DNA from: a virus
DNA: 23,708 nucleotides
IMG/VR virus record: IMGVR_UViG_3300031227_014569
Span: 1 to 23,708 of that record
Direction: 5' to 3' (one strand)
The notes under the pieces are model-generated. The model saw nothing but the letters and a program-made list of their open reading frames with translations. It made no database searches and was not told where the DNA came from. A program made the position numbers and the translations under genes. Below are positions 1-22,289 of this stretch, piece after piece. Every line of letters starts with the position of its first letter. Position 1 is the stretch's first letter.

Positions 1-349
1 AATGATTAGAACCAGAGCTTTGCATTGTTTTATTAAATAGAGATCCAACCATTACATAATCTGCTCCTAGTGCAAGTGCCTTAATTATATCATCATAGCC
101 TTGCATTCCACCATCTGCAACAATTTTGGTTTTGAATTCTCCTTCTTTCTTAATTGCTTTGCATTCTGATATTAAAGATCCTAGCGGATAGTTAATTGCT
201 ACATTAGCTGCGGTTGTACATCCTGAATTATGAACTATAATACCATTAATATTATATGAATGGTCGTTTTCTACTTCTAAATCATATATTTTTCCTTCGT
301 AATATTCTTTTGAAATATTTTCTATTGGTATTAATTTAAAACTTTTCAT
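1..349 (-). CDS. Split-intein C-fragment fused to C-terminal half of IMP dehydrogenase/GMP reductase (partial)
   Basis: The gene runs off the left edge. From its ATG at 349 it encodes a 41-residue intein C-fragment with block F (YDLEVENDHSYNI) and block G (GIIVHN), ending in the canonical His-Asn. Then comes extein beginning SGCTTAANVAINYPLGS, which continues into IVADGGM and IIKALALGADYVMVGSLF. These are the catalytic Cys loop and the phosphate-binding region of the IMPDH/GMP reductase TIM barrel. Trans-splicing with the product of the gene at 1426-2250 would give the loop SIGTG-SGCTTA and restore the enzyme. The ATG overlaps the TGA of the endonuclease gene upstream (ATGA), so translation is probably coupled. 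The IntC closely resembles the metagenomic IMPDH-1 split intein as I remember it. Whether the enzyme oxidises IMP or reduces GMP cannot be settled without the missing C-terminus. Confidence 0.9.
   Translation of the reverse strand, partial: MKSFKLIPIENISKEYYEGKIYDLEVENDHSYNINGIIVHNSGCTTAANVAINYPLGSLISECKAIKKEGEFKTKIVADGGMQGYDDIIKALALGADYVMVGSLFNKTMQSSGSNH
227..349 (-). mobile_element. Split intein C-fragment (IntC), 41 residues
   Basis: Residues 1-41 of the preceding gene. Block F contains the conserved Asp and His of DHSYNI, and the last residues are Val-His-Asn followed by extein Ser. The terminal Asn cyclises and the +1 Ser accepts the extein during protein splicing. It starts with its own Met, so it is made as a separate chain from IntN. 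Confidence 0.9.
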
Positions 350-1377
350 TTATTAATAAAATTTAAACATTTTTCTAACTCTTTATTAGAGTTATTTCTA
401 TAATCAGATTCCCATATAATTAAAATATCATATCCGTTTTGTTTTGCTAAATCATTTTTAGATTTGTCGTTTTCCCAAATTTCTTTAGCAGATATTCCGA
501 TAAAATCAAATGGAATATCTTCTTCTTCATATATTTTAGGATTAGCATGCCATTTATCTCCATTAAATTCTATTACTTTTTTAGTATCTTTTATAACAAA
601 ATCAAAATTTTTAGATCTTATACCACAACTAAATTCATGATTTAACTCTGCGAAATATATTTTTTTATATTGGCTATTAATTTCAGAATATATTTCCCAA
701 AATAATTTTTGAGATATTTTAGACCAATTTTTATTATTTTGTTTATTATATGTCCTAAAATAAGAAGTATCTGATAATTTTTTTAAATATACAACCCATT
801 TTTTATCTGCTTCTTCTTTTCCATATTTTTCCACCCAAATATCATAAACTTTCTTATTAAACATTGGATTGTTTTTACCTGCAGTTTTTTCAGATATTTT
901 TCTTTTATAAATTAATTGTTTTTTATCTGCTTCTTCTTTTCCATATGTTTCCACCCAAATATCATAAACTTTCTTATTAAACATTGGATTGTTTTTGCCA
1001 TCATATTTCCCTTTATTTTTTCCTAATAAAGCGTAATGTAATTTTAGTTTAGTTTCTTTTGATTTTTCTCTTCCTTTATTTTTAATACTTATATTATTTT
1101 TAGATTTTGATGTATGGTGTTTTCCAAACATTCCATTTCTATTTCCTTTATTTCTACATTTTTTACAAAGAAAAATTTTATCTATATTTGGAATATTTTT
1201 TAATTTGTTTTTATTATCACATTCATCACACAATACAAAAAATCCTTCATTCATCAAATCTTTACGTAAGAATTCCATATTATTTTTAGATATAAGAATA
1301 TGTTTATTTTTATTATCTATTTTATAAAATTCTAATTCTTCGTCTTTGAATAGAATTTGCGGAATGATTTTTTTCAT
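346..1377 (-). CDS. Vsr-like homing endonuclease inside a split-intein gene
   Basis: 343 residues. The N-terminal part has a C-x2-C...C-x2-C zinc-binding pattern (Cys50, 53, 71, 74), then NUMOD3-like NGMFGKHHTSKSK near residue 80. Two near-identical GKNNPMFNKKVYDIWVE repeats start at residues 127 and 167; these are probably DNA-contacting modules. Residues about 235-325 match the very-short-patch-repair (Vsr) endonuclease fold: FDFVI (Asp259), VIEFNGDKWHANP (His277), WENDKSK and GYDILIIWE. In family members this is a nuclease that cuts an intein-less allele and spreads the element. Its position between the IntN and IntC genes is the fractured-gene arrangement described for marine metagenomes. 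A promoter-like motif ends 1 base before the ATG, and its TGA overlaps the next ATG. Confidence 0.88.
   Translation of the reverse strand: MKKIIPQILFKDEELEFYKIDNKNKHILISKNNMEFLRKDLMNEGFFVLCDECDNKNKLKNIPNIDKIFLCKKCRNKGNRNGMFGKHHTSKSKNNISIKNKGREKSKETKLKLHYALLGKNKGKYDGKNNPMFNKKVYDIWVETYGKEEADKKQLIYKRKISEKTAGKNNPMFNKKVYDIWVEKYGKEEADKKWVVYLKKLSDTSYFRTYNKQNNKNWSKISQKLFWEIYSEINSQYKKIYFAELNHEFSCGIRSKNFDFVIKDTKKVIEFNGDKWHANPKIYEEEDIPFDFIGISAKEIWENDKSKNDLAKQNGYDILIIWESDYRNNSNKELEKCLNFINK
799..998 (-). repeat. Two copies of a ~79-bp direct repeat, 120 bp apart, in the endonuclease gene
   Basis: Positions 799-877 and 919-997 are identical except for a couple of bases (for example t/g near 827/947 and a/g near 877/997). 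They encode the two copies of GKNNPMFNKKVYDIWVE followed by YGKEEADKK. The near-identity at the DNA level suggests recent duplication of a DNA-binding module. Confidence 0.85.
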
Positions 1378-1378
1378 T

Positions 1379-1394
1379 TTTATTTTATATATTC
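1379..1394 (-). promoter_or_regulatory. GAATATATAAAATAAA motif before the Vsr-like endonuclease
   Basis: Exact copy of the 16-base motif found before many genes here. It ends 1 base before the ATG at 1377, so if it is a promoter the message would be nearly leaderless. It lies downstream of the IntN stop codon, so the endonuclease seems to carry its own start signal. Confidence 0.5.
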
Positions 1395-1425
1395 ATAGAA
1401 ATTATTTAAGAATTTACTTTGGTAG

Positions 1426-2250
1426 TTAATATTCTATTAATAAATGTTTTTCTTTATCTAATTGCTCCGCACTTATCCATTTTGCATACTTTTGGATATT
1501 TTCATTATTTACTATATTTTTATATTGCGTTTCTATTATATAAAATTCGTGTGTCTTTGTGCAAAAAATATTATTTACTTTATAAATTTCCTCTTCTATT
1601 TCATATTCAAATTTAGTTTTAACTTCTTGATATTTATTTTTGTGAGTTAATACTTTATCTCCTATTTGAATATCTTCTATGTTTTTTTCGTTATCTTTTA
1701 ATTTAATAATTTGGCCTGGAGTAAAACATCCGGTTCCAATTGAGCATCTAACATAATCGGCTCCAGCCATTGCTAGATTTTTATATGTAAGTGGATGCGC
1801 GACGTTTCCAACCATCACTTTTACTTCTGGAGTATGAACTTTCATTAATTTTAGAACATCGATAAGTTTTTGCATATGACCATTAGCAATATCGATAAGA
1901 ACATGCTTATAATACCAATATTGAGGTCTTGTAGTATTTCTTGTTAATTGATTATCTTCTAATGTCTGTAAATCATATTCTATTTCGCTTAATCCATAAG
2001 CTTGAAATACAACAGGATTGTCTGGTACTAAAGTTCTTGGATAATATTCTCCTCTTGGCATACAAGGTACGATATTATTTTCTATAAATTTCTCGACATT
2101 TTTATTACAAACTACAGTATCCATAGGAGCGGTCATTAAAGGTAACAATCCATTCTTATGTGTAGTTTTACATTCACTTCTACTACTAATATCACTTATT
2201 ACAGTAGGCACTATTGAAATGTCTCGCAAATCAAATTTAACGTCATCCAT
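1426..2250 (-). CDS. N-terminal half of IMP dehydrogenase/GMP reductase fused to split-intein N-fragment
   Basis: 274 residues. Residues 1-174 are the N-terminal part of an IMPDH/GMP reductase barrel: FDLRDISIVPT, LMTAPMDTV, LIDIANGHM and MVGNVAHPLTYKNLAMAGADYVRCSIGTG. No CBS domains are present. Residue Cys175 starts a 100-residue IntN with block A CFTPG, IGDKVLTH, and block B CTKTHEFYI, ending HLLIEY then a stop. The enzyme is thus cut in the active-site loop, and the catalytic Cys is on the other chain. It is strongly like the IMPDH-1 split intein in length and in the ending HLLIE. The start is supported by a TATAAAAAATAAA box just upstream. Purine nucleotide interconversion fits the neighbouring dUTPase and ribonucleotide reductase genes. 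Confidence 0.92.
   Translation of the reverse strand: MDDVKFDLRDISIVPTVISDISSRSECKTTHKNGLLPLMTAPMDTVVCNKNVEKFIENNIVPCMPRGEYYPRTLVPDNPVVFQAYGLSEIEYDLQTLEDNQLTRNTTRPQYWYYKHVLIDIANGHMQKLIDVLKLMKVHTPEVKVMVGNVAHPLTYKNLAMAGADYVRCSIGTGCFTPGQIIKLKDNEKNIEDIQIGDKVLTHKNKYQEVKTKFEYEIEEEIYKVNNIFCTKTHEFYIIETQYKNIVNNENIQKYAKWISAEQLDKEKHLLIEY
1429..1728 (-). mobile_element. Split intein N-fragment (IntN), 100 residues
   Basis: Codons 175-274 of the IMPDH/GMPR N-gene. Cys1 is the splicing nucleophile and the block B Thr-x-x-His is present (TKTH). There is no endonuclease within the fragment; the nuclease gene lies separately downstream. The insertion point is after SIGTG, two residues before the catalytic Cys of the enzyme. 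Confidence 0.92.
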
Positions 2251-4904: not shown

Positions 4905-4920
4905 TTTATTTTATATATTC
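4905..4920 (-). promoter_or_regulatory. GAATATATAAAATAAA motif before the repeat protein gene
   Basis: Exact motif copy, 9 bases before the ATG at 4895 and directly after the terminator hairpin at 4927-4953. This order, stop of one unit then start of the next, favours a promoter role. Confidence 0.6.
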
Positions 4921-4958: not shown

Positions 4959-7900
4959 TTAGCATTTAGAAAATGAACAGGAATTGCAATGTATACAACT
5001 CTCTTCCCTAACAAGGGTCCCTCCACATTCTGGACATTTTTCTTCTTGAATGTCATCATCAATATACCTACTAAGATAACGTCGTACAACAGATGAAAAA
5101 CTTGTTACATTTTCATCTATTTTCTTAATTACGTTAAGTACATGAGAAACAGGAGCACCGTGTCTTAAAAGCATCGAAGCTGTTAAACAAAGGGTTTTCT
5201 GTTCAATTCTATCGGCTGCAAGTTGAAGATCCTCAATCTCGAACTCCCCATTAATAAATTTGTAGTGTCCTTTTTTAATTTTGACAACTCTTCCTGTGGT
5301 ATTCTTAATGCTTGGAGGATTTTCAAATGCGAATACTTCATAAGGTCTAGATGTGCCTGGCCACCGGCCGATAATGACAGCGAAATCTCTCCCGGCTGCT
5401 TTTGCTGCATAGTAATCTGCTTTAAGTTCTCTTGGTCTCTTTGGTGCATTTGTTTCATGAAATTCTTCTGTTTTTTCTTCTTTCTTGGATAAAATAACTC
5501 CTGTTCTTGATCCTTCTCTATAAATTGTACACCCTTTACAACCCACTTTCCAAGCTTCATAATAGATTTTATTAACTTCTTCTTCATTTATATCTTCGGG
5601 AAGATTATGAGTAACTGAAATTGAATGGTCAATCCATTTTTGAATAATACCTTGCATTCTAACTTTTTCAAGATAATCAACATCGTGAGATTCAGAACCA
5701 GCCCATGGTGATAAATCAATTAATCTATCAAGTTCTTCATCAGATATTGAATTTAGATAAGCTGAATAACCTGCATTAGATTTGACTGATAAATATTCGG
5801 CATTTTTTGTTTGTGCATACCATTTTATAAACTCAAAGTGGAAAACGTTATATTCTTGCCATGAATCTCCATTTTCATCAGTAAAATCTATCGTTGCTTC
5901 GGTATCATTTGGATTAATTTTTCTTCTTCTTAATGATCTAATTTTAAATACTGGTTCAATACCTGAAGTTGTCCTTGCTTCAATAGCAAGTGTACCTGTA
6001 GGCGCAATAGAAAGGGAAGCAATATTCCTTCTTCCATATTTTACATATTCTTCATATTCTTCGGTAGTAAAATGATTAGAAATAATTCTAGAAATAAATG
6101 GATTATTACATTCTTTATCATAATCCCAAATTGGAAATGCTCCTCTTTCTTTAGCAAGTTGAACAGTTTCTTTATAACAGGAAACGGCTATGACTTCAAA
6201 AAGTTTGTCGATTAGTTTAGTTGCCTTCTTAGAACCATATTGAATTCCTAACTTAGCTAACATATCTCCTAATCCAAGAACACCAATTCCTGTTCTTCTT
6301 CCATTTCTTAGAACCTCTAATACTCTAGTCCATGTTCTTAATTCAACAGCTTTTAAATATTCCTCTTCCGGATCAGATTTAATTTTTTCTATGATTGTTA
6401 TAACCTTCTCTTCTTCTAAGGAAACAACATCATCCATTGTCCTTTGAGCAAATCTTGAAGTTTTTTCTAATAATTCCCAATCAACCTTTGCACCTTTCTT
6501 GTATGGTTTAAGTACCATATTTGATAGGTTTAGTGATCCCAGACGACACGAATCAAAGGGGCTTAATGGTACCTCACCGCAATTTTTGATACATATCCCT
6601 GAAGATGTTACAAACTTATCATCCTCATTAGATGTTATGATATGATAATTATGATTGTCATCAACAGTTATGTTATAAACATCTTCATATCCATGAAAAG
6701 ATGCAGATACTACTTTATGATTTTCAGATACTTGGTTTTTAAAATTGGTAAATGAGTTGAATCTAAATTTATTACTTAATCTAAGAGGGGCTCCGGTTTG
6801 TTTTGCGTAATCATACCATATATTTCTGGTTAATTTGCCTTCTAATAAAAATATGTTTCTCCCTAAATCTAATAGTTCATTATTAGTCCATCCACTATAT
6901 CTTCCATTTGTCTCTCCGGGATGTGATGCAAAGTTTTTCTTCCATTCTTTAGACATCTTATGATAAGGATTCTTTTTTCCTACCATCATCTCAGAATGAA
7001 GTTTTTTATGCTCTTCAACTAACATTCTCTGTAAATTTTCTATTGAATCATTTTTATTATCGAAATTTTTATGGTGAATATGATATTGTTTAGCATCTAT
7101 ATCTCCATTGAAAAATTCATCAATTATCCTATATTGTCTTTTATTACGGAAATTTCCCCCGATCATTTTAGATCCAACTCTTGAAATTTGTCTATATCCG
7201 TTAGATTCAAATGAATAAAAAGGTATTAATGATTCTCCGGGGGTTAAATCTTTTAGTTCTTTATATATTAATTCTGAAGTTAAAATTTTATGATCAGGTG
7301 TAGCAATAAGTTCACTACCATCATCCAATTTTAATTTCCAAACTTCAGCGGATGATTGAGTTAATCTTGGATTTCTCCCCCATTTTATCTGAGTTTGTCC
7401 AGTATTATAATCAGTTGAATAAACAGGAACATCTTTTCCTTCATTTACTAATTGTTTAATACTAACTGCATTTCTTCCATCTGCCGTTGCAATTAAAGTT
7501 GATCCAATTATGCAGGGGTTAGTTCCTTTTGTTACAAAACCTTGATCAGCATAACAATCAGCTGGAGATTCTTTAATAATGTTGTCCCAAAATAAAACTC
7601 CAGGTTCAGCATTTTTCCAAGCTTGGTGAATTAAAGAATCCCATACTTCTTTGGCTTTTACTCTTTTTACATAAGTGCCATTTTCTCTTTTATATAGTTG
7701 GTTATATGGGATTTGTTCGGTAATCTCCGGTTGTTTTCCAGTCGTAGGCCAATGTAGAATATAATCTTGGTCAGCCTCGGCTGCTTTCATAAACTCATCG
7801 GTTATCTTAAGTGATACATTAGCTCCTGTAACCTTTGTTAAATCATCTTTCTTTACAATAAATTCTGGAGCATCCGGGTGATTAATATGATTACTAAGCA

Positions 7901-8447
7901 TTAAAGCACCTCTTCTACCATCTTGGGCAACTTCTCTTGTGGTTGCCGAATATCTATCCATAAATGAGACAGCACCGGTTGATGATTGAGCACTATTATT
8001 CACTAAACTACCTCCAGGACGGAGGTTTTCTATAGTCACTCCAACGCCACCTCTTCTTTTCATAAGTTGTGCCATTGTTTCATCTATATTGAAAATAGCG
8101 CCATATGAATCTGCTCCATTATCTATAAAGAAACAATTTCCTAATGATGAAATTTGGTAAGGATTACCGAGTCCGAATAAAATGGACCCACCGAATATAA
8201 AGTTTTTGAAATTATCTAAATGATCATGTATTTCTGCTTTTTCTATAGAGTTTGGAAATTTTAATTCCATCCTATGAATTTCGTTTGTTATTCTATTTAA
8301 TGTATCTTTTGGTGTTTGTTCTTTGTATTTTCCATTCTTTTTTAATGCGTATTTATTGATCCAAACGTTAGAGGCCAAATTGTCTCCTTCAAAGTAAGAT
8401 AGCGCGGCCTCATTTAATTGATCAACCTCGTAGGTTTCATTGATCAT
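4959..8447 (-). CDS. nrdJ: Class II (B12-dependent) ribonucleotide reductase with HNH intein
   Basis: Reduces ribonucleotides to deoxyribonucleotides for phage DNA synthesis. The open frame extends to 8555, but I chose Met37 of that frame (MINETYEVDQLNEAALSYF, ATG at 8447). The extra 36 residues are basic, overlap the polymerase gene and are unlike reductase, and a TATAAATA box lies at 8486-8493. This gives 1162 residues, 851 after intein removal. Extein features are SSLGNCF with the first redox Cys, the intein-split catalytic motif TNP-CGEVPL (thiyl Cys), FDSCRLGSLNLSNMV with the partner Cys, and APTGTLAIEARTTSGIEPVF. A TSCPD-like C-terminal region is followed by a zinc/redox tail CPECGGT...CIHCNSC..SKC, typical of class II enzymes. 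No small subunit is seen nearby, as expected for this class. Confidence 0.93.
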   Translation of the reverse strand: MINETYEVDQLNEAALSYFEGDNLASNVWINKYALKKNGKYKEQTPKDTLNRITNEIHRMELKFPNSIEKAEIHDHLDNFKNFIFGGSILFGLGNPYQISSLGNCFFIDNGADSYGAIFNIDETMAQLMKRRGGVGVTIENLRPGGSLVNNSAQSSTGAVSFMDRYSATTREVAQDGRRGALMLSNHINHPDAPEFIVKKDDLTKVTGANVSLKITDEFMKAAEADQDYILHWPTTGKQPEITEQIPYNQLYKRENGTYVKRVKAKEVWDSLIHQAWKNAEPGVLFWDNIIKESPADCYADQGFVTKGTNPCIIGSTLIATADGRNAVSIKQLVNEGKDVPVYSTDYNTGQTQIKWGRNPRLTQSSAEVWKLKLDDGSELIATPDHKILTSELIYKELKDLTPGESLIPFYSFESNGYRQISRVGSKMIGGNFRNKRQYRIIDEFFNGDIDAKQYHIHHKNFDNKNDSIENLQRMLVEEHKKLHSEMMVGKKNPYHKMSKEWKKNFASHPGETNGRYSGWTNNELLDLGRNIFLLEGKLTRNIWYDYAKQTGAPLRLSNKFRFNSFTNFKNQVSENHKVVSASFHGYEDVYNITVDDNHNYHIITSNEDDKFVTSSGICIKNCGEVPLSPFDSCRLGSLNLSNMVLKPYKKGAKVDWELLEKTSRFAQRTMDDVVSLEEEKVITIIEKIKSDPEEEYLKAVELRTWTRVLEVLRNGRRTGIGVLGLGDMLAKLGIQYGSKKATKLIDKLFEVIAVSCYKETVQLAKERGAFPIWDYDKECNNPFISRIISNHFTTEEYEEYVKYGRRNIASLSIAPTGTLAIEARTTSGIEPVFKIRSLRRRKINPNDTEATIDFTDENGDSWQEYNVFHFEFIKWYAQTKNAEYLSVKSNAGYSAYLNSISDEELDRLIDLSPWAGSESHDVDYLEKVRMQGIIQKWIDHSISVTHNLPEDINEEEVNKIYYEAWKVGCKGCTIYREGSRTGVILSKKEEKTEEFHETNAPKRPRELKADYYAAKAAGRDFAVIIGRWPGTSRPYEVFAFENPPSIKNTTGRVVKIKKGHYKFINGEFEIEDLQLAADRIEQKTLCLTASMLLRHGAPVSHVLNVIKKIDENVTSFSSVVRRYLSRYIDDDIQEEKCPECGGTLVREESCIHCNSCSFSKC
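6582..7514 (-). mobile_element. Intein with HNH endonuclease in NrdJ, 311 residues
   Basis: Begins Cys-Ile-Ile-Gly-Ser (block A) and has block B ATPDHKIL. An HNH nuclease core (YHIHHKNFDNKNDSIENLQ, intein residues ~144-162) is followed by EEHKKLHSE and a NUMOD3-like KKNPYHKMS. Block F is VYNITVDDNHNYHI, and the end is GICIKN followed by extein Cys. The penultimate residue is Lys instead of the usual His, a tolerated but less common variant. It sits exactly before the thiyl-radical Cys of the NPCGE motif, a well-known intein site in reductases. The chain is continuous, so splicing is in cis. Confidence 0.93.
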
Positions 8448-8485
8448 ATTAAAAATATGTTTATTTTTGTTATAGTTTATTTGAT

Positions 8486-8493
8486 TATTTATA
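8486..8493 (-). promoter_or_regulatory. nrdJ: TATAAATA box (T4 late promoter-like) before nrdJ
   Basis: TATAAATA on the minus strand matches the T4 late -10 consensus exactly. It lies 38 bases before the chosen ATG at 8447 and just after the polymerase stop codon. A role is inferred from position and match. Confidence 0.45.
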
Positions 8494-8508
8494 TAGACTT
8501 TTTTTCCC

Positions 8509-9945
8509 TTAAATGGCAGATTGTAAGCGTTTTTTCTTAATCTTTTGGAGCTCATCCACTTCGATGTCTGCTCGTTGAGATATTTTCTTCGCAGTTTTTC
8601 TTTGACTGTAATAATCCGTTAAAATTTCCGGAATTAATGGTTCGAATGATGCATCGAAAACTGCTCCAGATACACATTTAATTTGTTTATCATTTGTTTG
8701 AAACTGTTTATCCTTTATGATGAAGTTTTCAATTGATATCATGAACTGTCTCATAATAGAAGGATATAGGGATGCAAAGTCAAATGATGCTACCCATCCA
8801 TACAAATCAGGTGTTGGTTCGAAAACGAAAGCCCCTTCAAAATGTTCTCTTTCTTTTTTATCCCATACCTTTGGAAACACTTGTTTTCTTTGATATGCAT
8901 GTCTAGATAACGTAGCTTCCAACATTTGGATTGGAGAAAACGCATCCATGGCTTGTACTCGTGTAATTGTCCCAAGTCCTAAGAATGTAGACATAGTCTT
9001 TAATTTTTCATCCATTAGTTCTACTAACACTGAATCAATTACATTATAAAAGATATAGAGTTCATAATCATTATTAAAAAGTTCCTTTAATGTACCTGGA
9101 TATTTAACTTTCTTGATTCCAAGTGCTGCTTCAGAAACAAAGTCAAGGGTTCCATTTTCTTTTGGGTTAATAGTTCTATCCCATTTTTCATAAATTGCCT
9201 TATAGTCAACAATAAGTTTATGTTGAGGTAATTTAATGTGACGTTTCTTTCCTTTGATTGTAACTCTATGATCATACCATTGTGATGTTGGTGACATCCA
9301 AGATATGTCCATATTCAATCTTTTTGTACAACGATTATAAATATAGTCCCAATCATATCCCCAGAAAAACCATCCAGTAATAAGTGGAGCATGTCTAGCA
9401 TAATTATACAAGAAATCATATAGCATATCTGCCTCATTCTCATACTGGTGATAAACGAATTTATACTTTTTACCAAATTTTTCGATGTGTTTATTGACAT
9501 CTCTTTCAATTCTATCGCATTCTTCACCACTAAGTGGCTTTAATCCAAACGCATGAGCATCTGGATATTTTACCCAGGATATAGAATTAATTCTATTTTT
9601 TGCATCTTCAGGTTCCGCGAATCCTTCATCAGTTACGTCTACTTCGATATCACAAGAATACATGTCTGGCATATTACGTTCGAACAAATGTTTAGTATGT
9701 TCTTCACCTGCATCCATGAAAAATTCTTGGATTCTATGTTTATCTAAGAATTGTGCCGGACGCTTTGTAACAGCTTTCCCATCCCAAGAAGTTAATCCCG
9801 GAACTGCACCTCTACCTTGTTTTGCGTAACTATATGAAAATTGATGATTTGATGGAACAGTTAATTGCGAAAATGCCACTTTCCCATCTTCATTTATATA
9901 AGAAATTATTAATCTGCCTTGTCGTTGTTCAATATTTAAAATCAT
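8509..9945 (-). CDS. Family B DNA polymerase, N-terminal half ending in motif B
   Basis: 478 residues, about half of T4 gp43. The exonuclease domain shows Exo I SCDIEVD (Asp99, Glu101), Exo II as ITGWFFWGYDWDYI where the usual Asn is replaced, and Exo III YNVIDSVLV (Asp304). Polymerase motif A is FDFASLYPSI (Asp389). The frame stops after KKKRLQSAI, exactly where family B proteins continue into motif B (K-x3-N-S-x-Y-G). Motif B and motif C (DTDS), with the second catalytic Asp, are absent from all three frames of the following DNA and from the rest of the window. A partner fragment elsewhere in the genome is likely (a split polymerase); otherwise it is a truncated gene. No intein start follows the break. 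Its 3' end overlaps only the unused extension of the nrdJ frame. Confidence 0.88.
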   Translation of the reverse strand: MILNIEQRQGRLIISYINEDGKVAFSQLTVPSNHQFSYSYAKQGRGAVPGLTSWDGKAVTKRPAQFLDKHRIQEFFMDAGEEHTKHLFERNMPDMYSCDIEVDVTDEGFAEPEDAKNRINSISWVKYPDAHAFGLKPLSGEECDRIERDVNKHIEKFGKKYKFVYHQYENEADMLYDFLYNYARHAPLITGWFFWGYDWDYIYNRCTKRLNMDISWMSPTSQWYDHRVTIKGKKRHIKLPQHKLIVDYKAIYEKWDRTINPKENGTLDFVSEAALGIKKVKYPGTLKELFNNDYELYIFYNVIDSVLVELMDEKLKTMSTFLGLGTITRVQAMDAFSPIQMLEATLSRHAYQRKQVFPKVWDKKEREHFEGAFVFEPTPDLYGWVASFDFASLYPSIMRQFMISIENFIIKDKQFQTNDKQIKCVSGAVFDASFEPLIPEILTDYYSQRKTAKKISQRADIEVDELQKIKKKRLQSAI

Positions 9946-11848: not shown

Positions 11849-11864
11849 TTTATTTTATATATTC
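11849..11864 (-). promoter_or_regulatory. GAATATATAAAATAAA motif before the 260-residue unknown gene
   Basis: Exact copy, 7 bases before the ATG at 11841. The match with the copy at 13141-13156 continues further upstream (CGTGTATAA precedes the core in both), giving about 25 shared bases. Confidence 0.6.
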
Positions 11865-14034: not shown

Positions 14035-14582
14035 TTTTTCTTTTCTATTAATCTTGATTTAATTCCCGGTATTTGATTAGCTATTTCAATATTTTTATGA
14101 CTATCATCAAAAAATAAAACTTGGTCATATTTATCAGCTAAATCAGATAAAACTTTCTTTTTGGCTGCTGGGATATCATAATGTTCACCGTCATCTCGAC
14201 CCAATGTTATAACATTTTCTAATGGCATATTAATACCTTCTCTTGTTAAAAAATTATGAATGGCCAATTGAGCTTTATGAGATCTGGCTGTTAGAATATA
14301 AATTTCTGAACTACTTCGACCTGATTTCTTAGCCATGTCAATATTTTTAAGGGCCGGCCACATTTTATATTTTTGGGCATTCATTATAATACGAGGATCA
14401 ATGAAATCTTCCATATTAGTAGTTTCACCTTTCTTTGGCTTATAGAAATTATATTCTTCAGGGGTGAGAGAATTAATTCTTCTTCCATCCTTATAAACAT
14501 GAACCTTAGCAGAAGTTTTCACTAATGTATCATCGAAATCCATGACATAACATTTAAATTGTGGTACTTCTCGTGCTCTCAT
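14031..14582 (-). CDS. HAD-superfamily phosphatase
   Basis: 183 residues from the chosen start (MRAREVPQFK, ATG 14582), which overlaps the TGA of the GIY-YIG gene. An in-frame ATG at 14594 would add four residues inside that gene and is less likely. HAD motif I is DFDDTLV (Asp15 nucleophile, Asp17), motif II is YILTARS, Lys residues stand in the AAKKKVL stretch, and motif IV is LFFDDSHKN. The overall look is that of phage polynucleotide-kinase-type 3'-phosphatase or 5'-nucleotidase domains with no kinase domain attached. The probable substrate is a nucleotide or nucleic acid end, inferred only. It is co-translated with GH16 downstream. Confidence 0.82.
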   Translation of the reverse strand: MRAREVPQFKCYVMDFDDTLVKTSAKVHVYKDGRRINSLTPEEYNFYKPKKGETTNMEDFIDPRIIMNAQKYKMWPALKNIDMAKKSGRSSSEIYILTARSHKAQLAIHNFLTREGINMPLENVITLGRDDGEHYDIPAAKKKVLSDLADKYDQVLFFDDSHKNIEIANQIPGIKSRLIEKKK

Positions 14583-15193
14583 ATTACTATCCATTTTTTG
14601 TGGTGGGATCTACTTCCATTAATCACAGCATTTATATGACATGATAAAGATCCAATTTTGTTTGCTAAATCAAACTTATGACCTTTAAATATTTCTCCGG
14701 TTTCTTTATTTTTAAAATTATATATATTGTGATCAAATCTAGGGTTGTTCTTCCCTTTTTCCGTGCCACGTTCTTTTCTAGTATTTCCCATTTTTAATTT
14801 AGATTCTTTAGAATGAGATTGTCCAAACATTCCATTGTTTTCTCCTTTAGCTAAATTTCTTTCTTGTCTAATTTTACTCATTTGTTTCTTAGCCTTTGCT
14901 GTGTGTTTATAATTAACTGCGCCTTCTCCGCCATCAGTTAAATTATATCCATTTGGCCACTTTGTATTCTTTTCATTAATCCAAAATGTTTCTCTTTCTT
15001 CCCAATTATCTTCATTACAAATTTCAAGTATTTCTTTTTTAAAATTCTTTCTTCCATGTTTCTTAATGGATCGTTGAATAATTCGTCCACTACCTAGGTA
15101 TTTATCCTTTATATTATTCGTAGAATGATAACCTACATAAGATAATCTGGTGTTTAAATTAGTTGTTATGTATATCGTATGTTTCTTACCCAT
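14579..15193 (-). CDS. Free-standing GIY-YIG homing endonuclease
   Basis: 204 residues. The GIY-YIG core is IYITTN...SYVGYHST, then YLGSGRIIQRSIKKHGRKNFKKEILE and the Glu-containing ERETFWINEKN with GYNLTDGGEG. The DNA-binding part has NUMOD3-like NNGMFGQSHSKESKLKM, a second copy-like KGKNNPRFDH, and a C-terminal NUMOD1-like segment (IFKGHKFDLANKIG). It is a Seg-like mobile gene that spreads by cutting and repair. It is fitted between two genes with minimal overlap: its start overlaps the previous stop (ATGGGTAA) and its TGA overlaps the HAD start. This keeps both neighbours intact, as expected for an established mobile gene. Confidence 0.9.
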   Translation of the reverse strand: MGKKHTIYITTNLNTRLSYVGYHSTNNIKDKYLGSGRIIQRSIKKHGRKNFKKEILEICNEDNWEERETFWINEKNTKWPNGYNLTDGGEGAVNYKHTAKAKKQMSKIRQERNLAKGENNGMFGQSHSKESKLKMGNTRKERGTEKGKNNPRFDHNIYNFKNKETGEIFKGHKFDLANKIGSLSCHINAVINGSRSHHKKWIVI

Positions 15194-21441: not shown

Positions 21442-21457
21442 TTTATTTTATATATTC
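21442..21457 (-). promoter_or_regulatory. GAATATATAAAATAAA motif overlapping the GIY-YIG stop
   Basis: Exact copy, 10 bases before the ATG at 21431. In the upstream GIY-YIG frame the same bases read Glu-Tyr-Ile-Lys-stop. Confidence 0.65.
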
Positions 21458-22081
21458 ATTCTTTTTTTTTCTTCTAGACTCTTTCATTCTGGTAGCTGTT
21501 TCTATACCATATCGTTCTTCCCAAGTCTTTCCTTTTACTGCATTACTTATATGTATATTATGTTCTTTAGAATTTTTTTTCCCCAAATGAGAATTACTCA
21601 TTTTTTTCTTTGTATCATCACTATGAATAGTTCCATATCTATTATTCTTATGTCCTATTTTATTTTTTATACTAATTTTCATTTTATTTGATATATCTAT
21701 TCCATATCGTTCTTCCCATGAAAGGTTTTTAAATTTTCCTTTCATCGTCTTTTTGGTTTTTTCCCGGGCTGCAATAGTTTGTGGAGATCCTAATCTTCCT
21801 TTACCACCCCATGTTTGATTATATCCGCCTAAAGTAGTATGTGCATTTAATTTCTTTATCCAGTATTGCTCTTGTTTTTGCCAATTATCCGGATTAACAT
21901 ATTCAATTATACCCTTAACAAAATTGTTTATTCCATATTTATCAATAGATTTATGTAAAAGAACACCACTTCCAAAATATTGATCATATTCTATATTAGT
22001 AGCATGAAACCCCACATAACATTTTTTATTGTATAAATTAGCTATCTTATATATGTAATAGTAATTATAATTTAAAATCAT
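21443..22081 (-). CDS. Second free-standing GIY-YIG homing endonuclease
   Basis: 212 residues from ATG 22081; a TTG six codons earlier (22099) is an unlikely alternative. The GIY-YIG core is YYIYKIANLYNKKCYVGFHAT, then FGSGVLLHKSIDKYGINNFVKGIIEY, EQYWIKKLN and GGYNQTWGGKG. The C-terminal DNA-binding half has a repeated SWEERYGI / TWEERYGI unit and two NUMOD3-like segments (NNRYGTIHSDDTKKKMS, KKNSKEHNIHISNAVKG). It is related in plan to the endonuclease at 14579-15193 but diverged. It sits at the end of the minus-strand series and terminates exactly inside the start signal of the next gene. The ATG directly follows TATATAAAATAT, so any leader is extremely short. Confidence 0.88.
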   Translation of the reverse strand: MILNYNYYYIYKIANLYNKKCYVGFHATNIEYDQYFGSGVLLHKSIDKYGINNFVKGIIEYVNPDNWQKQEQYWIKKLNAHTTLGGYNQTWGGKGRLGSPQTIAAREKTKKTMKGKFKNLSWEERYGIDISNKMKISIKNKIGHKNNRYGTIHSDDTKKKMSNSHLGKKNSKEHNIHISNAVKGKTWEERYGIETATRMKESRRKKKNEYIK

Positions 22082-22289
22082 ATATTTTATATATCTCAAT
22101 GAACAATGTCAATTGTGTGAGTTTTGATAAATGTTAACTTAATAATATAACCAAAATAATTGAATTTTGAAAATATTTAAGCACTTATTTGTATTTTTTG
22201 AAAACTTAATTTTTTCTTAACAAATCTGGTGATTTCTGGTACGATTTTGTTAGTATAGTATATATATCACATAAAATAAAACGCACGTT
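22082..22289. promoter_or_regulatory. Divergent intergenic region between the GIY-YIG gene and the secreted protein gene
   Basis: 208 bases of very AT-rich DNA and the main strand switch of the window. The minus side has GATATATAAAATAT (about 22082-22096) for the endonuclease. The plus side has several TATA-like stretches (GTATAGTATATATATC) and then CATAAAATAAAAC (22269-22282), a relaxed copy of the phage motif, before the ATG at 22290. No hairpin, tRNA or further gene is seen. Confidence 0.6.

What the first reader, a model, noticed from the sequence alone, without database searches (positions are those of the whole stretch)
1..2250. Fractured IMPDH/GMP reductase gene: split intein with a Vsr-like endonuclease gene between the halves
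The sequence shows N-extein(174)-IntN(100) ending in a stop, then a separate Vsr-like endonuclease gene, then IntC(41)-C-extein as a third gene. Fusing the exteins gives SIGTG-SGCTTA, an intact enzyme active-site loop. The same arrangement is known from marine metagenomes (the IMPDH-1 split intein and its relatives, prized for fast trans-splicing), but few have an assigned virus and host context. Here the phage neighbourhood is visible.
Basis: partly seen in the sequence, partly recalled or inferred. Interest (0 to 1): 0.85.

Follow-up and report, generated by a model that had tools for sequence, protein, structure and literature searches.

The report
Phage enzyme gene split by intein
A large phage carries a purine-enzyme gene broken into two pieces, each ending in half of a self-splicing protein element that should rejoin them, with a DNA-cutting homing gene in the gap; the arrangement is already known from marine metagenomes, but phage relatives with empty, full and decayed versions of the site show its life cycle.

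Summary
On the minus strand the window encodes N-extein (174 aa)+IntN (100 aa), a Vsr/EDxHD-like endonuclease (343 aa), and IntC (41 aa)+C-extein, cut by the contig end. All splicing residues are present. Five distinct relatives carry the gene uninterrupted at exactly this position; the nearest (L006) is 87% identical in exteins. Two other phages (one a 405-kb contig) have the same three-part locus, and that contig holds no intact copy elsewhere. With the window, 23 distinct loci share this insertion site: 14 with an intact endonuclease gene, one frame-broken, six with it deleted (five keep a C-terminal stub), two contiguous. Tree conflict (AU p=1.6e-58) and intein synonymous divergence about ten times below that of the exteins in two pairs indicate movement by homing. 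This is a new member of the known 'fractured gene'/IMPDH-1 split-intein kind; splicing itself is inferred, not shown. Additions: placement in a large, probably Bacteroidota-type phage; a divergent IMPDH/GMP-reductase-like host enzyme; matched empty sites; and a full-to-decayed series of endonuclease genes whose 3' ends overlap the IntC start.

The parts
1729..2250 (-). N-extein, 174 aa, N-terminal half of an IMPDH/GMP-reductase-like enzyme, ends ...VRCSIGTG
   Evidence: ORF; Pfam IMPDH 1.9e-11 for the ORF; 84% identical to the uninterrupted gene of L006
1426..1728 (-). IntN, 100 aa plus TAA stop; starts CFTPGQ, block B CTKTH
   Evidence: Hint_2 4e-6; 67% identical to L005 IntN; dN/dS 0.26 against L005
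1379..1391 (-). TATATAAAATAAA, promoter-like motif directly before the endonuclease gene; one of 7 exact copies before genes in the window
   Evidence: 12 matches with one mismatch allowed, 0.79 expected by shuffling; a similar AATATATAAATTAAA precedes the L005 endonuclease gene; function inferred
346..1377 (-). Free-standing endonuclease gene, 343 aa: CxxC...CxxC N-terminus, two NUMOD3 motifs, C-terminal Vsr/EDxHD-type nuclease (IEFNGDKWHANP)
   Evidence: NUMOD3 2e-9; family profile hits I-Bth0305I 3r3p 7e-5; Foldseek Vsr 1cw0/1vsr prob 0.99, E 0.05-0.09; dN/dS 0.38 against L005
227..349 (-). IntC, 41 aa, own ATG overlapping the endonuclease stop codon (ATGA), ends IIVHN
   Evidence: Pfam Intein_splicing 6e-6, profile 123-155 of 155; 71% identical to L005 IntC
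2..226 (-). C-extein, first 75 aa, starts SGCTTA (Ser+1, catalytic Cys+3); cut by the contig end
   Evidence: Pfam IMPDH 1e-13; 95% identical to L006

Best explanation
This is a 'fractured gene': a mobile split intein with its homing endonuclease gene in the catalytic loop of a phage IMPDH/GMP-reductase-like enzyme. The two half-genes are translated separately; IntN and IntC associate and trans-splice by the class 1 route (Cys1, Ser+1, Asn cyclisation), giving an enzyme with an unbroken SIGTG-SGCTTA loop. The endonuclease is expected to cut the intein-free allele of co-infecting relatives at or near this site, so that repair copies IntN-endonuclease-IntC into it. Shown here: anatomy, conserved residues, purifying selection, empty sites, horizontal movement of the intein. 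Inferred: splicing, enzyme activity, cleavage target.
For: Anatomy and families. Splicing residues intact. Uninterrupted genes at the exact site in L006, L007(=L008), L009, L010, L011. Same locus in L005(=L004) and L016. Intein tree joins window+L005+L016 (100/99); extein tree joins window+L006 (100/99) inside a clade of intein-free genes; AU test p 1.6e-58. dS of intein against exteins: L019/L021 0.03/0.00 against 0.49/0.40; L017/L024 0.05/0.00 against 0.47/0.39. Window against L005 dN/dS: IntN 0.26, IntC 0.27, endonuclease 0.38. All intein-bearing loci have Ser at +1, whereas the 8 intein-free genes nearest the window have Ala or Gly. Only the two halves in the 405-kb contig. Endonuclease fold.
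Against: No splicing or cleavage data. The C-extein is incomplete in this record. No co-conversion tract between window and L006. dS values for the window/L005 pair are near saturation. The endonuclease model has low confidence (pLDDT 68.7, pTM 0.34).
Confidence: 0.9

Rival explanations
1. The two halves assemble without splicing, as a two-subunit enzyme, the intein parts being inert tails. The DNA polymerase of the same phages is encoded in two separate parts without inteins, so split enzymes are tolerated.
For: Polymerase N-half at 9945-8509 ends without intein; in related contigs the C-half lies about 31-49 kb away with no IntC.
Against: Catalytic splicing residues are conserved in 23 loci; Ser+1 replaces the Ala/Gly of the nearest intein-free genes; the break is inside the active-site loop, next to the catalytic Cys, where 141 extra residues would be expected to disrupt the site.
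Confidence: 0.05
2. Dead remnant: the gene is inactivated and its pieces are decaying.
For: Related loci do show decayed endonuclease genes.
Against: All three window ORFs are intact and under purifying selection against L005 (dN/dS 0.26-0.38); no intein half is broken in any locus examined, while the endonuclease gene is broken or gone in seven.
Confidence: 0.03
3. Assembly artefact joining unrelated pieces.
For: Single metagenomic contig, with the C-extein at its very end.
Against: Same order, spacing and homologous sequence in separately assembled contigs L004 (111 kb), L005 (405 kb) and L016.
Confidence: 0.01
4. The endonuclease is a stand-alone homing gene that happens to sit between the halves and targets some other site; the split intein is a passenger.
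For: The 405-kb L005 genome has a second, weaker relative of the endonuclease elsewhere; stand-alone Vsr-like homing genes are known (own knowledge).
Against: 14 distinct loci have a member of the same endonuclease family at exactly this place, and the 3' end of the gene overlaps the IntC start in 13 of 14.
Confidence: 0.06

Closest known systems
Fractured genes (Dassa et al. 2009, Nucleic Acids Res 37:2560; not held in the library; content given from own knowledge, title as cited in PMC7090010)
   Same: Conserved enzyme gene broken by a split intein with a free-standing endonuclease gene between the halves; Vsr-related endonuclease; mostly phage; IMPDH among the host genes
   Different: Host enzyme is a divergent phage IMPDH/GMPR-like branch; nearest relatives lie on 111-405 kb phage contigs; syntenic intein-free alleles are available
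IMPDH-1 split intein (Carvajal-Vallejos et al. 2012, cited in PMC11766414)
   Same: Same insertion site in the enzyme loop, Cys1 and Ser+1; loci with the published junction GGG|SIC (PMC12350263) belong to the same intein family
   Different: Junction GTG|SGC; IntN 47 and 44% identical to GGG|SIC members L017 and L021; splicing untested
I-Bth0305I (EDxHD homing endonuclease family; PMC3943268)
   Same: Profile hit to its solved catalytic domain 3r3p, E 7e-5; elongated protein with NUMOD-type modules
   Different: I-Bth0305I is associated with a group I intron; this one sits between split-intein halves
Contiguous relatives L020 and L041
   Same: Same insertion site and intein family
   Different: Intein in one reading frame; L020 keeps the IntC Met inside the fusion, as if re-fused from a split form

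Membership tests
Fractured gene (split intein + endonuclease gene) | Enzyme gene interrupted at one point, exteins joining exactly to an intact homologue | tested here: met
   Gap-free junction against L006-L011
Fractured gene (split intein + endonuclease gene) | IntN ends at a stop, IntC has its own start | tested here: met
   TAA at 1428-1426, ATG at 349
Fractured gene (split intein + endonuclease gene) | Endonuclease gene between the halves | tested here: met
   346-1377
Class 1 split intein | Cys1, block B TxxH, C-terminal His-Asn, nucleophilic +1 residue | tested here: met
   C1, CTKTH, VHN|S
Class 1 split intein | Trans-splicing activity | not testable with these tools
   needs expression
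IMPDH-1 intein allele family | Same insertion site and common intein descent | tested here: met
   GxG|SxC site in all relatives; same intein family as GGG|SIC loci; the published IMPDH-1 sequence itself was not aligned
EDxHD/Vsr-like homing endonucleases | Vsr-fold catalytic domain with conserved acidic/His motif | tested here: met
   3r3p E 7e-5 by profile; Vsr 1cw0/1vsr prob 0.99 by Foldseek though E only 0.05-0.09; D259, E270, G273, H277 invariant in 14
EDxHD/Vsr-like homing endonucleases | Site-specific cleavage of the intein-free allele | not testable with these tools
   needs cleavage assay
GMP reductase or IMP dehydrogenase (named enzyme) | Passes a curated equivalog cut-off | tested here: not met
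   Best 107 bits against a cut-off of 344 for the intact L006 gene
IMP dehydrogenase | Arg-Tyr flap and CBS domain | tested here: not met
   Flap Arg-Tyr absent in the alignment with E. coli GuaB; intact homologues only about 350 aa

The most novel reading that the evidence does not exclude
Fractured genes run a complete homing cycle that locks the split in place: the IntN-endonuclease-IntC cassette invades intein-free alleles, the endonuclease gene then decays, but because the IntC start codon and its ribosome-binding region lie within the endonuclease's 3' end, deletions leave that end as a stub and the gene stays split; occasionally the halves are re-fused (L020). This would explain how natural split inteins without an endonuclease arise.
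Probability: 0.5. Interest if true: 0.6.

Novelty: new member of a known kind. Interest (0 to 1): 0.42.

Why it matters
Split inteins of this family are among the fastest known and are widely used tools. The locus adds a diverged member that may be orthogonal to IMPDH-1, and the family series (empty, full, frame-broken, stub-only, contiguous) makes the origin of natural split inteins by homing and endonuclease decay directly testable, with a matched intein-free allele as cleavage substrate.

Tried and rejected
Co-conversion around the insertion site between the window and L006: mismatches are not clustered. Read-through of the IntN stop: several TAA/TGA stops follow in frame in the window; a 785-aa open frame reported for L021 was a tool artefact; only L019 and L030 have a lone TAG between IntN and endonuclease sequence. 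A first count of the +1 residue by pattern missed many Ser and was replaced by an alignment: Ser in 14 of 80 intein-free homologues, so Ser is not diagnostic across the whole subfamily, only against near relatives. A search with the N-half protein alone found nothing in viral contigs. No relative of the intein in GTDB genome contigs. No Rfam family such as a group I intron in the window or L005. The endonuclease model is of low confidence and used only as support for the profile hit. Naming the enzyme as GMP reductase or IMPDH: rejected, below all cut-offs. L028 shows no endonuclease stub. The key papers (Dassa 2009, Taylor 2011, Carvajal-Vallejos 2012) are not held.

Full report
What is there. 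The window is a whole 23,708-bp IMG/VR record. Its first 2,250 bases encode, on the minus strand, an N-extein fused to IntN, a separate endonuclease gene, and IntC fused to the first 75 residues of the C-extein. Pfam's IMPDH profile matches the two extein parts consecutively, and Hint/intein profiles match the intein parts. The endonuclease has NUMOD3 motifs and a C-terminal nuclease domain; a profile of 14 such proteins from the same site hits the solved catalytic domain of I-Bth0305I (3r3p, E 7e-5), and the low-confidence AlphaFold model returns Vsr as top Foldseek match (prob 0.99, E 0.05).

Empty and full sites. A scan of viral contigs with the IntC half found intein-free genes at the exact site in L006, L007(=L008), L009, L010 and L011, with the ribonucleotide reductase gene upstream in L006, L007 and L011 as in the window, plus the same three-part locus in L004/L005 (contigs of 111 and 405 kb, evidently one virus). 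L016 is a third one, with two apparent frameshifts in the endonuclease gene; assembly error cannot be excluded there. In the 405-kb contig the only IMPDH-family matches are the two halves.

The wider family. A profile of IntN found about 20 further distinct loci, all at the same place in IMPDH-family genes, between GxG and SxC. Eight of them (L017, L019, L020, L021, L024, L025, L027, L030) have the junction GGG|SIC, which is that of the published IMPDH-1 (PMC12350263). The state of the endonuclease differs: intact in 14 distinct loci including the window; frame-broken in L016; deleted to a C-terminal stub in L013 (E 2e-13), L019 (4e-12, its stub matching the end of the intact gene in L021), L035 (1e-11), L042 (2e-11, with a stop inside) and L022 (3e-6); absent without trace in L028; and the intein is contiguous in L020 and L041. 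In 13 of 14 intact loci the endonuclease gene overlaps the IntC start by 4-50 nt, so the IntC initiation region lies inside the endonuclease gene. This can explain why it is always the 3' end that survives. That reading is an inference.

Mobility. The intein tree groups window, L005 and L016 (100/99); the extein tree groups the window with intein-free L006 (100/99) inside a clade of intein-free genes, and holding the three intein-bearing exteins together is rejected (p 1.6e-58). In the pairs L019/L021 and L017/L024 the synonymous divergence of the intein is 0.00-0.05 while that of both exteins is 0.39-0.49. Both facts are what homing predicts. Between window and L005 the intein parts and the endonuclease are under purifying selection (dN/dS 0.26, 0.27, 0.38), with dS 0.8-1.0 and thus imprecise. 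No co-conversion tract was detectable between window and L006. Decay of the endonuclease after fixation is the expected end of the homing cycle as reviewed in PMC3229294.

The +1 residue. All intein-bearing genes have Ser at +1. The eight intein-free genes nearest to the window have Ala or Gly there; across 80 intein-free homologues the counts are G 32, A 18, N 14, S 14, Q 2, with the catalytic Cys in all 80. Intein-bearing alleles in this branch thus differ from their near relatives by the Ser that splicing requires (Fisher p 0.007 for 3/3 against 14/80, not corrected for relatedness).

The host enzyme. Intact homologues score 106-121 bits with the best GMP reductase model and 97-111 with the IMPDH model, all far below cut-offs. 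They lack a CBS domain and the Arg-Tyr flap of IMPDH but keep the loop Cys. Whether it is a GMP reductase, an IMPDH or something else is open.

Phage context. The polymerase half is closest, among named phages, to Prevotella Lak phages (38% identity), relatives lie on contigs up to 405 kb, and only 1 of 18 genes has a Shine-Dalgarno-like sequence (12.7% at random positions). A large phage of a Bacteroidota-type host is the most likely source; this is an inference. Sampling sites and hosts are not given by the tools.

Verdict. The arrangement is a known kind. Splicing and cleavage remain untested.

Noticed in passing
window 4959-8555 (-): Ribonucleotide reductase carries a contiguous intein (residues about 349-658) with an HNH-type endonuclease domain; L006, L007 and L011 have the intein-free gene.
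   Followed up: partly
window 8509-9945 (-); L134, L137: Family B DNA polymerase is encoded in two parts without inteins; in related 260-405 kb contigs the C-terminal part lies about 31-49 kb from the N-terminal part.
   Followed up: partly
window, upstream of 7 genes (e.g. 1379-1391, 4905-4917, 11849-11861): Motif TATATAAAATAAA, 7 exact copies, all on the coding strand just before genes; reminiscent of a late promoter.
   Followed up: partly
L005 8718-11761: NAD-dependent DNA ligase gene split into two ORFs with a DUF7487/TnsA-like endonuclease gene between them and no intein or Rfam intron found.
   Followed up: partly
window 14579-15193 and 21443-22099 (-): Two further putative homing endonuclease genes (one GIY-YIG, both with NUMOD3), so the phage is rich in such genes.
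   Followed up: no
window, 20 genes: Stop codons are TAA 16, TGA 4, TAG 0.
   Followed up: no
L020 5452-6951: Contiguous intein at the same site that keeps the IntC start Met inside the fused ORF (LIELIAEMKFKLVEI), suggesting re-fusion of split halves.
   Followed up: partly
L030 6304: IntN is followed by a lone TAG and then the endonuclease in the same frame.
   Followed up: no
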